Below are positions 32,236-40,389 of a stretch of 64,000 nucleotides of DNA, piece after piece. Position 1 is the first letter of the stretch, and each line of letters begins with the position of its first letter. The notes below the pieces were generated by a model. It ran no database searches and had not been told where the DNA came from. It saw only the letters and a list, made by a program, of their open reading frames with translations. The translations under genes were made by a program, and so were the position numbers. This DNA comes from Burkholderiales bacterium (GTDB lineage Bacteria; Pseudomonadota; Gammaproteobacteria; Burkholderiales; Burkholderiaceae_B): contig JAJTEM010000006.1 of NCBI GenBank assembly GCA_021299735.1, positions 105,669-169,668 on the forward strand, given 5' to 3'.

Positions 32236-33150
32236 ATGCCCAAAGACCAACTTGCAGAACTGACCCAGCCTCAGCGCGACCGGCTCGCGTTTATTGAGCT
32301 GCGTGTGCGCTTCGTGGGGGAGATTCGTCGGCAGGACCTGGTTGCGCGGTTTGGCATCCAGTCCGCAGCGGCAACTCGGGATTTGGCGCTCTATAAGGAG
32401 TTGTCTCCAGGCAACATCGACTATGACCCAAAAGGCAAGGCCTACGTCCTGGGATCGGACTTCCGCCCCATCTTCGACTTTCCTCCGGAGCGGGTGCTGT
32501 CTTGGTTGACGCAGGGCTTTGGTGACGGCGAGCCGATGCGGCTCAAGGCGTGGGTGGCCAGCGAAAGCCCCTCACGGCTTACGCACCCGGATCTGGAGGT
32601 GCTGGCAAGCGTGACCCGGGCGATCCATCTGGAGTGTCCGCTTGGCGTTGAGTACTACTCCATATCTAGCGGCTGTAATGAGCGGGAAGTCGTCCCCTTT
32701 GCGCTGATCGACAACGGCCTGCGCTGGCATGTCCGCGCCTTCGACCGGAAGTCCCAGGAGTTCCGGGATTTCGTCATCACCCGAATCAAGAACCCTGTCG
32801 TGCTCAAAGGGCAGCCGGTCGCAGCCCATGAGATGAGCGATCAAGACATTCAGTGGACGCGGATCGTCGAACTGGAGTTGGTGCCCCACCCGGATCAGCC
32901 CCGGCCGGAGATCACCGAAATGGATTACGGCATGCGCGACGGCGTGCTGCGTATGAAGCTGCGCGCTGCCACGGCTGGATACATCCTGCGCAAATGGAGT
33001 GTCGACTGTTCGCCCGATCATTGCCTGCGCGGACCGGAGTACCGGTTATGGCTCAAAGACCACTTGGCAATTTATGGAGTCAAGAATGCGATTTTGGCAC
33101 CGGGCTATAAATCGCAAGAACAAAAATTAGTAAAAGCGGAGGCTGACTGA
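32236..33150 (+). CDS. WYL-domain transcriptional regulator (CapW/BrxR-like)
   Basis: N-terminal winged-helix-like QRDRLAFIELRVRFVGEIRRQDLVARFGIQSAAATRDLALYKEL; WYL-like VEYYSISSGCNEREVVPFALIDNGLRWHVRAFDRKSQEFRDFVITRI. Confidence 0.85.
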   Translation: MPKDQLAELTQPQRDRLAFIELRVRFVGEIRRQDLVARFGIQSAAATRDLALYKELSPGNIDYDPKGKAYVLGSDFRPIFDFPPERVLSWLTQGFGDGEPMRLKAWVASESPSRLTHPDLEVLASVTRAIHLECPLGVEYYSISSGCNEREVVPFALIDNGLRWHVRAFDRKSQEFRDFVITRIKNPVVLKGQPVAAHEMSDQDIQWTRIVELELVPHPDQPRPEITEMDYGMRDGVLRMKLRAATAGYILRKWSVDCSPDHCLRGPEYRLWLKDHLAIYGVKNAILAPGYKSQEQKLVKAEAD

Positions 33151-33190
33151 TGGGCGACGCAATCCGTTCGTTTCGGTCAAGGGAAAAACA

Positions 33191-38635: not shown

Positions 38636-38670
38636 GCGAACCCGGCGTACGCAAAAGGGAAAAAAACACA

Positions 38671-40389
38671 ATGGCCAAGACACTTGAAGCCCACGACAAA
38701 CTGATCCGGGAGATTTTCGAAGGCAGCTACCAGTTCGAGATTCCGGACTACCAGCGCCCCTACGCGTGGACAACAGAGCAGGCCACCGAGTTGTTCGATG
38801 ATCTGTACTCGGCGATGCAGGATGCGCGTGCCGCAGGGGCCAGCAGCCAGTATTTCCTCGGCAGCATCGTTCTGATCAAGGCGGATCGAGATCCCAAGTC
38901 ATTCGTGGTGGATGGCCAGCAGCGCCTGTCCACGCTTACGATACTGCTTGCAGTTTTGCGCGTCCTGATGCCCAACTCGGCATCTTTCCTCACCAAATAC
39001 CTCTACAAAGAAGGAAATCCTGAGTGGGGTGAGCTCAACGAATATCGCCTGAAGGCCCGCGAGGAGGACGCCGATTTTTTCCGTACCTACATCCAGGAAC
39101 AAGGTGGGTTGGAACGCCTGGTTTCGAGCACTGACAAGCTGAAAGACAGCCGCCTGCGTTACCGCGAGAACGCCACACTGCTGCTCGAAAAGGCCAAATC
39201 GCTGTCGCCTGCGGATTTGAACGCCCTTTGGAAGTTCCTCGCCAACGACTGCTCGCTGGTTGTCATCTCCACGCCCGACCTCGAGGCCGCATACCGCATC
39301 TTCGCCGTACTCAACAACCGGGGACTCGACCTCGCGCCTATCGACATCATCAAGGCGCAGGTTCTTGGCCTGATCCGCACTACGGCAGGCGAGGTCAAGA
39401 GCCGCGCCTACGCAAAAGAGTGGAGCCGGATCGAAAGTTCACTGGGCCGCGACGCCTTCGGTGACCTGTTTGGCCACATCCGCAGCATCTACGCCAAGAA
39501 GAAGCAGAAGTACATCCTGGTCAAGGAGTTCCAGGAGCACGTCACCGAGTACAAGACCCCTATCGACCTCGTCGACAAGGTCATCAAACCCTATGCCGAA
39601 GTGTGGGACTTCGTGCGCGATGCAGACTTCGAGGCCACCGAACACGCCGAGACGATCAACGAACACCTGTCTTGGCTCAACCGCGTGGACTTCAAGGACT
39701 GGGTGCCCCCGGCACTGGTCTACTTCAAGCGTTTCCGGCAGCAACCCAAACTGCTCGCAGAGTTTTTCCAGTCACTGGAACGCCTGACCTATTTCCTGTT
39801 GGTCACCAAGGTGGGCATCAACGAGCGCATCGAAACCTACGCTGCGCTCACCAAGGAGATTGAACCGGAGGCCTTCAAGGGGGATCTGGCTGCGCTTACC
39901 ACGCTCATACTGACAGACGCGCAAAAGCGCAAGTTCGTCGCGGCACTCGATGGAGACGTGTACGACGATCTGCCCAAGGCACGGATGGCGCTGGTCTTGC
40001 GCCTTGAGTCCTTGGTGCGCGCCCCCGGCGTGCAGCTTCAAGATGCCGTGTCTCTGGAGCACGTTCTGCCGCAAACCCCGCCCGACGGCTCGGACTGGAT
40101 CAAGTGGTTCCCGGATGAAGACGAGCGCGATGGCTGGACGCACCGTTTGGCCAATCTGGTTCCGCTGGATAGGAACAAGAACTCGTCCGCCAGCAACTAT
40201 GACTTTGCCAAGAAAAAGGACGCCTACTTCAAGGGCAAAGGCAAGGCCTCGCCCTTCGTGTTGACGCAGGAAGTCAGAGCAGAAAACGAGTGGACGCCCG
40301 CGCTCCTGACCGAACGCCAGAAACGCCTTGTGGGCGTCCTCAAAGACCATTGGAATCTCGCCGTCTCCACAGGCACGGCGGCGAGCTGA
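38671..40389 (+). CDS. GmrSD-type (DUF262 + DUF1524) protein, type IV restriction-like
   Basis: FEIPDYQRPYAWTTEQATELFDDL, FVVDGQQRLSTLTILLAVLR, LEHVLPQTPPDGSDWIKWFPDEDERDGWTHRLANLVPLDRNKNSSASNYDFAKKKDAYF. ORF is listed from TTG 38632; ATG 38671 with AAGGGA upstream is preferred. Confidence 0.9.
   Translation: MAKTLEAHDKLIREIFEGSYQFEIPDYQRPYAWTTEQATELFDDLYSAMQDARAAGASSQYFLGSIVLIKADRDPKSFVVDGQQRLSTLTILLAVLRVLMPNSASFLTKYLYKEGNPEWGELNEYRLKAREEDADFFRTYIQEQGGLERLVSSTDKLKDSRLRYRENATLLLEKAKSLSPADLNALWKFLANDCSLVVISTPDLEAAYRIFAVLNNRGLDLAPIDIIKAQVLGLIRTTAGEVKSRAYAKEWSRIESSLGRDAFGDLFGHIRSIYAKKKQKYILVKEFQEHVTEYKTPIDLVDKVIKPYAEVWDFVRDADFEATEHAETINEHLSWLNRVDFKDWVPPALVYFKRFRQQPKLLAEFFQSLERLTYFLLVTKVGINERIETYAALTKEIEPEAFKGDLAALTTLILTDAQKRKFVAALDGDVYDDLPKARMALVLRLESLVRAPGVQLQDAVSLEHVLPQTPPDGSDWIKWFPDEDERDGWTHRLANLVPLDRNKNSSASNYDFAKKKDAYFKGKGKASPFVLTQEVRAENEWTPALLTERQKRLVGVLKDHWNLAVSTGTAAS

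What the first reader, a model, noticed from the sequence alone, without database searches (positions are those of the whole stretch)
32236..40389. Candidate undescribed defence operon: WYL regulator - DUF4011/SF1 helicase/Vsr-like nuclease/Gre-like fusion - GmrSD
Seen in sequence: three same-strand ORFs with gaps of about 40 and 35 nt, headed by a CapW/BrxR-type WYL regulator, in the middle of a defence island. Known: SF1 helicase-Vsr single-protein systems (for example Hhe-like) and GmrSD type IV restriction are each associated with phage defence. Inference: here they may be co-regulated and act together, e.g. the helicase-nuclease processing DNA opened or nicked by GmrSD. I do not recognise this exact three-gene combination as a named system.
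Basis: partly seen in the sequence, partly recalled or inferred. Interest (0 to 1): 0.75.

Follow-up and report, generated by a model that had tools for sequence, protein, structure and literature searches.

The report
Helicase-nuclease cassette in type I operon
The three genes are real and very probably one operon, but they are the surviving front part of a larger bacterial anti-virus operon (regulator, helicase-nuclease, modified-DNA nuclease, then a classical restriction-modification system that this genome has lost), and the helicase-nuclease is a mobile part that pairs more often with restriction-modification genes than with the modified-DNA nuclease.

Summary
In detail: a BrxR-family WYL gene (32236-33150), a DUF4011/SF1 helicase/Vsr-like nuclease/Gre-domain protein (33191-38635) and a GmrSD-type gene (38671-40389) lie on one strand, 40 and 35 nt apart, behind one conserved promoter-like site. 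In relatives the full cluster is brxR - helicase - gmrSD - hsdM - hsdS - hsdR. Comparing over 160 helicase loci and several GmrSD loci shows a modular slot between brxR and hsdM: GmrSD alone (Enterobacterales plasmids), helicase alone, or both. For helicases at least 80% alike, hsdM follows in 20 of 48 readable loci, GmrSD in only 9; below 80% identity, 2 of 80 each. Nearly identical helicases pair with three diverged BrxR types and five hsdM clusters, often with overlapping stop and start codons. So helicase and GmrSD are separate modules under a shared regulator, not an obligate pair; the proposed joint mechanism is unsupported. Type I-embedded GmrSD and BrxR near type I enzymes are published; I found no published account of a Gre-domain helicase-nuclease as a recurrent type I accessory gene. 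New variant of a known kind, moderately interesting.

The parts
32157..32185 (+). promoter-like site TTGCCA-17-TATACT upstream of the WYL gene
   Evidence: only sigma-70-like match in 32000-41400 on either strand (10/12); the -10 and flanking bases are conserved in loci whose upstream DNA is otherwise unrelated (L003, L011, L020). Consensus match only, not tested.
32236..33150 (+). BrxR-family WYL transcriptional regulator (304 aa)
   Evidence: PF13280 5.8e-11; PDB 7qfz WYL protein E=6.7e-85 over residues 6-292, CapW 9c5g 1.9e-30, BrxR 7t8k 4.7e-24
33191..38635 (+). DUF4011 - SF1 helicase - Vsr-like (MTES_1575) nuclease - GreA_C-like domain protein (1814 aa); Hhe-like/PDC-S37-like, GreA_C subfamily
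   Evidence: motifs GPPGTGKS, DEASQ, GDPkQLPPT, RRLNVLFTR and nuclease ECDG..YH / RDRDR conserved in >=95% of 55 homologues and intact here
38671..40389 (+). GmrSD-family (DUF262-DUF1524) single-chain type IV-like restriction enzyme (572 aa)
   Evidence: GmrSD_N 7.7e-40, GmrSD_C 3.5e-23; QR, DGQQR, FxxxN, EH..N..N invariant in 30 homologues; AlphaFold model matches DndI 9jfl, SspE, BrxU
40401..40805 (+). truncated hsdM (first ~128 codons 97% identical to intact hsdM of L020), remnant of an hsdMSR operon
   Evidence: HsdM_N 1.3e-19; homology to intact operons ends at about 40788; no hsdM/S/R of this family elsewhere in the genome

Best explanation
The three genes are the surviving 5' part of a modular, BrxR-regulated type I restriction-modification operon: brxR - [accessory slot] - hsdM - hsdS - hsdR, in which the slot holds a Gre-domain helicase-nuclease, a GmrSD, or (here) both. 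Shown: gene order, domain content, slot variants, loss of hsdMSR in this genome, and recurrent pairing of the helicase with diverged brxR and unrelated hsdM genes. Inferred: the WYL protein represses one promoter in front of the whole operon and is relieved by an infection or DNA-damage signal; the products then work as parallel layers. HsdMSR would cut DNA lacking the host methylation; GmrSD, an NTP-dependent His-Me nuclease, would cut phage DNA whose modified cytosines defeat type I enzymes; the SF1 helicase-nuclease would unwind and cut broken, unwound or transcribed invader DNA, with its Gre-like C-terminal domain possibly docking on RNA polymerase. In this genome only regulator, helicase-nuclease and GmrSD remain and probably act as independent effectors.
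For: Six-gene cluster in L002 and L020 (helicase there split by an IS) and, with the 5' end off the contig, L139/L206; brxR-helicase-GmrSD-hsdM in L010 and L011. GmrSD-only slot: brxR-gmrSD-hsdMSR on Serratia and E. coli plasmids, the same without an annotated full hsdR on an Enterobacter plasmid, and brxR-gmrSD-hsdM in G218. Helicase-only slot: helicase-hsdMSR in L108 (HsdM 93%, HsdR 94% to L020), L015, L092. Mosaic: between the Serratia plasmid and L020 HsdR is 97% and HsdM 93% identical, and GmrSD is 86% but WYL only 55% identical to the window's. In 56 loci with helicase >=80%, hsdM starts within 600 nt downstream 16 times and GmrSD 9 times, against 0.08 and 0.16 expected from hits elsewhere in the same flanks. 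Near-identical helicases pair with BrxR types about 38-48% alike and with five hsdM clusters; a quick tree needs 12 changes of hsdM/none and 3 of GmrSD presence. Helicase stop overlaps or abuts the hsdM start in three hsdM families. No + strand terminator-like site in 32000-41400. hsdM is truncated while brxR-gmrSD stay also on two E. coli plasmids.
Against: No expression or phage data. No clear BrxR-type inverted repeat was found upstream. Nineteen of 30 helicases at 80-90% identity have neither hsdM nor GmrSD downstream, so type I linkage is common, not universal. The census uses the best-scoring loci of two collections and is biased to close relatives and metagenome assemblies. Layered action and RNA polymerase docking are inference.
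Confidence: 0.62

Rival explanations
1. Helicase-nuclease and GmrSD form one dedicated two-component effector under the WYL regulator: GmrSD nicks modified DNA and the helicase-nuclease processes it.
For: Adjacent, co-directional, 35 nt apart, both intact and kept together here after hsdMSR was lost. The pair occurs on more than one helicase branch (window clade; L193 with a GmrSD remnant), so parsimony needs 3 changes of GmrSD presence.
Against: Each occurs without the other far more often: GmrSD next to 9 of 48 close helicases and 2 of 80 distant ones; close GmrSD without helicase on all plasmids examined and in viral contigs L207, L208. The related enzyme BrxU acts independently (stated in PMC11411939 and PMC12707154).
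Confidence: 0.12
2. The helicase-nuclease is functionally coupled to type I restriction: it either degrades DNA opened by HsdR translocation or guards the operon (like PrrC for EcoprrI), firing when a phage inhibitor blocks the type I enzyme; GmrSD is a passenger.
For: Helicase directly before hsdM, with overlapping or abutting stop and start codons, in three unrelated hsdM families; repeated gain in independent lineages. Precedent for guard genes inside type I loci: PrrC (PMC12707154).
Against: Many close homologues stand with no hsd gene nearby (19/30 at 80-90%), and this genome keeps an intact helicase gene after losing hsdMSR, so strict dependence is unlikely.
Confidence: 0.2
3. Decaying remnant: ordinary clustering of defence genes in a tRNA-Phe-linked island, with no functional meaning in the order.
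For: Truncated hsdM; island G+C 56-60% against 51% for the genome; tRNA-Phe at 41242-41317; IS insertion in the helicase of L020.
Against: Reading frames and catalytic motifs of all three genes are intact; order, strand and short spacing recur in independent loci with different backgrounds.
Confidence: 0.06

Closest known systems
Hhe (DUF4011 anti-phage protein; NCBIfam NF042953, PADLOC Hhe)
   Same: DUF4011, split SF1 helicase and MTES_1575/Vsr-like nuclease; 1371 bits over residues 14-1711; 43-47% identity to a Klebsiella plasmid Hhe in the helicase parts
   Different: Below the curated cut-off (1371 < 2000); ends in a GreA_C-like domain that sequences of the Hhe branch lack; often operonic with brxR and hsdM, which was not seen for the two Hhe plasmid genes looked at
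PDC-S37 (PADLOC single-gene candidate)
   Same: Best PADLOC match of the helicase, 1210 bits
   Different: A candidate for which no paper was found; the model also hits true Hhe at 1267 bits, so it does not separate the two
[quoted passage not shown] PMC11411939)
   Same: GmrSD-like genes inside a type I RM operon, proposed to cover modified DNA that type I enzymes miss
   Different: TgvAB is two DUF262 proteins embedded in hsdMSR, both needed; here one chain between the helicase (or brxR) and hsdM, with a WYL gene at the head
BrxU / SspE / DndI (GmrSD-family enzymes)
   Same: Fold and motifs; BrxU lies in a BrxR-regulated BREX island
   Different: DndC absent from the genome; not in a BREX cluster here; specificity untested
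BrxR / CapW regulators (PMC9122601, PMC9122588)
   Same: Near full-length match to solved BrxR/CapW structures; first gene of a defence operon. Published survey: of 210 BrxR-associated systems 16% are type I and 18% type IV enzymes (PMC9122601)
   Different: No clear inverted-repeat operator found here; helicase partner not found in the passages read
RptR - type I RM - DarTG2 island of enteropathogenic E. coli (PMC12255303)
   Same: A dedicated repressor in front of a type I operon that carries an embedded second defence system
   Different: Different regulator and different embedded system

Membership tests
Hhe | score over NCBIfam NF042953 cut-off (2000 bits) | tested here: not met
   1370.8 bits
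Hhe | DUF4011 + SF1 helicase + MTES_1575/Vsr-like nuclease in one chain | tested here: met
Hhe | C-terminus of the Hhe branch (no GreA_C-like domain) | tested here: not met
   residues 1726-1806 align with GreA_C-like ends in the diverse relatives of its own branch, not with kHHE, L037, L041, L046, L071
Hhe | anti-phage activity | not testable with these tools
   needs phage assays
PDC-S37 | match to the PADLOC model | tested here: inconclusive
   1210 bits, best PADLOC hit, but no cut-off shown and true Hhe scores 1267
BrxR/CapW WYL regulators | near full-length homology to solved members | tested here: met
   7qfz 6.7e-85, 9c5g 1.9e-30, 7t8k 4.7e-24
BrxR/CapW WYL regulators | first gene of a defence operon | tested here: met
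BrxR/CapW WYL regulators | inverted-repeat operator near the promoter | tested here: inconclusive
   only a 10-nt imperfect repeat with 35-nt spacing, 32111-32165; the BrxR paper found repeats for 193 of 347 homologues and reports that one site can suffice (PMC9122601)
GmrSD type IV restriction enzymes | DUF262 and DUF1524 domains over cut-off | tested here: met
GmrSD type IV restriction enzymes | motifs QR, DGQQR, FxxxN and His-Me EH..N..N | tested here: met
   Q27R28, DGQQR80-84, F210..N214, E462H463, N494, N503 (numbering of alignment A2) invariant over 30 sequences
GmrSD type IV restriction enzymes | cleavage dependent on modified cytosine | not testable with these tools
   needs assay
SspE/DndI phosphorothioate sensors | dnd or ssp modification genes in the genome | tested here: not met
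   DndC TIGR03183 absent (genome about 92% complete); ssp genes not searched
Type I RM system | hsdM, hsdS and hsdR present and intact | tested here: not met
   only 134 codons of hsdM in the window; nothing of this family elsewhere in the genome; met in L020 and L139
TgvAB | two DUF262 proteins, both required | tested here: not met
   one DUF262-DUF1524 chain here

The most novel reading that the evidence does not exclude
The Gre-domain helicase-nuclease is a dedicated accessory of type I restriction: a transcription-linked nuclease that docks on RNA polymerase through its GreA_C-like domain and finishes off, or guards, DNA engaged by HsdR, and that has been slotted between a BrxR regulator and hsdM of several unrelated type I families.
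Probability: 0.17. Interest if true: 0.8.

Novelty: new variant of a known kind. Interest (0 to 1): 0.48.

Why it matters
It turns an odd three-gene list into a testable layout: one regulator and one slot in front of hsdM that trades a modified-DNA nuclease, a helicase-nuclease, or both. That allows a direct test of whether bacteria combine complementary defences under one switch, and offers a helicase-nuclease with a transcription-factor domain, a pairing I did not find described in the papers searched.

Tried and rejected
Helicase-GmrSD as the conserved unit: rejected by the neighbour census and by GmrSD-only clusters. Filing the helicase as Hhe: rejected on score and C-terminus. GmrSD as a Dnd or TgvAB component: rejected. 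A second type I system of the same family elsewhere in the genome: none. Operator search by inverted repeats: nothing convincing. Viral contigs: only a few relatives, one of them (L206/L210) resembling L139. Literature searches on DUF4011, Hhe, PDC-S37 and a Gre-type helicase-nuclease gave no description of this operon, though most subscription papers are not in that library. A first alignment of GmrSD relatives failed on a locus with a stop and was repeated without it.

Full report
What is there. The first is a BrxR-family WYL regulator. The second is a 1814-residue protein with DUF4011, a split SF1 helicase, an MTES_1575 (Vsr-like) nuclease and a C-terminal GreA/GreB-like domain. The Gre domain is weak by Pfam alone but is supported by a family profile against PDB sequences (GreA 4.9e-6, Gfh1 1.3e-5) and by the AlphaFold model of residues 1540-1814 (mean pLDDT 74.8, Gre part mostly 80-92; Foldseek GreA/Gfh1 best 1.5e-6 and homing endonuclease I-Bth0305I for the nuclease). 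The third is a single-chain GmrSD with all its motifs whose model (pLDDT 86.3) is nearest to DndI, SspE and BrxU. The true start of the third gene is most likely ATG 38671, giving gaps of 40 and 35 nt.

Eleven nt after the third gene is the start of hsdM (40401-40805). Homology to intact hsdM in relatives breaks off near 40788, and a DUF2188 gene, a tRNA-Phe gene and ordinary metabolic genes follow. No hsdM, hsdS or hsdR of that family is elsewhere in the genome; two other contigs carry distant HsdM/HsdR relatives at about 26% identity. Upstream and divergent is a complete type I Wadjet operon. Island G+C is 56-60% against 51% genome-wide.

Relatives. Of 74 genome loci and 80 metagenome loci with a helicase relative, those closest to the window carry brxR-helicase-gmrSD, followed by hsdM and, where the operon is whole and sequenced far enough, hsdS and hsdR (L002, L020, L139; L010 and L011 as far as readable or intact). 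L003 has brxR-helicase only. L108, L015 and L092 have helicase-hsdMSR without GmrSD between. Plasmids of Serratia, Enterobacter and E. coli, and genome G218, have brxR-gmrSD-hsdM with no helicase. The hsdM and hsdR of the Serratia plasmid and L020 are 93-97% identical while the plasmid's regulator is 55% identical to the window's, so regulator and helicase move apart from the hsd genes.

Census. Among helicases at >=90% identity, GmrSD follows in 7 of 18 readable loci, hsdM in 11 of 18, and a WYL gene precedes in 10 of 19; at 80-90%: 2/30, 9/30, 18/28; at 55-80%: 1/23, 0/23, 1/15; below: 1/57, 2/57, 0/48. Within 600 nt downstream in 56 loci hsdM occurs 16 times and GmrSD 9 times, against 0.08 and 0.16 expected from the remaining flanks. 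In 401 genomes of the order, 31 have DUF4011 and only the window's genome and G227 (with a 46-residue GmrSD remnant) have it next to GmrSD. The helicase sits before five hsdM clusters, and in three of them its stop codon overlaps or abuts the hsdM start. Regulators of closely related helicases fall in three groups about 38-48% alike, of BrxR type in the two tested. On a quick tree, presence of hsdM downstream changes at least 12 times, GmrSD 3 times and WYL 8 times. Limits: the loci are best hits, not a random sample; the HMMs were built in session from these loci; near-duplicates were not all removed; L020 counts as carrying a helicase although an IS splits it.

How it most likely works. Shown is the anatomy. 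Inferred from BrxR (repressor of a BREX island, PMC9122601), from GmrSD enzymes and TgvAB (PMC11411939), and from helicase-nuclease defence systems in general: a repressed operon that on induction delivers parallel layers against unmodified DNA (HsdMSR), modified DNA (GmrSD) and unwound, broken or transcribed DNA (helicase-nuclease). The one promoter-like site and the lack of + strand terminators fit a single transcript, and the -10 region is conserved where the DNA farther upstream is not. The Gre-like domain suggests contact with RNA polymerase, but a Gre-type coiled coil, the part that enters the polymerase channel, is not predicted with confidence (residues 142-190 of the model below pLDDT 50).

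Against what is known. GmrSD inside type I loci is published (PMC4619093 finds type I domains the most frequent defence neighbours of GmrSD; TgvAB and RloF), BrxR near type I and type IV enzymes is published (PMC9122601), and repressor plus embedded defence in a type I operon is published for RptR-DarTG2 (PMC12255303). The helicase is Hhe-like but fails the Hhe cut-off and has a different C-terminus. What appears undescribed, within the papers I could search, is the Gre-domain helicase-nuclease as a recurrent neighbour of BrxR and hsdM. Hence: new variant of a known kind, interest 0.48.

Noticed in passing
window 25376-32102 (-): Complete type I Wadjet operon (jetA, jetB, jetC, jetD), divergent from the WYL gene across a 133-nt intergenic region; also next to the WYL gene in L002, L014 and L132.
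   Followed up: partly
window 41242-41317 (-): tRNA-Phe(GAA) at the right edge of the high-G+C island, a possible integration site; no flanking direct repeat was found.
   Followed up: partly
window 40823-41098 (+): DUF2188 gene joined directly behind the hsdM truncation point.
   Followed up: no
window 23764-25330 (+): RmrA-like HTH plus IrrE-type peptidase gene (PADLOC RmrA 1.8e-45) overlapping a small weakly PIN-like ORF: a possible toxin-antitoxin pair.
   Followed up: no
L020:11758-12935: Insertion (two transposase-like ORFs) splits the helicase gene in an otherwise intact six-gene operon.
   Followed up: no
L213:10740-12896 and L214:10740-11456: Two E. coli plasmids keep WYL and GmrSD but have a truncated hsdM, the same kind of loss as in the window.
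   Followed up: partly
L189:5280-14688: Klebsiella plasmid with a true hhe gene directly behind two DUF262 genes: an independent Hhe/GmrSD-like neighbourhood.
   Followed up: no
L003:1021-3884 and L011:4812-7675: An Hsp70-like gene with a small partner lies next to the WYL-helicase genes in two otherwise different loci.
   Followed up: no
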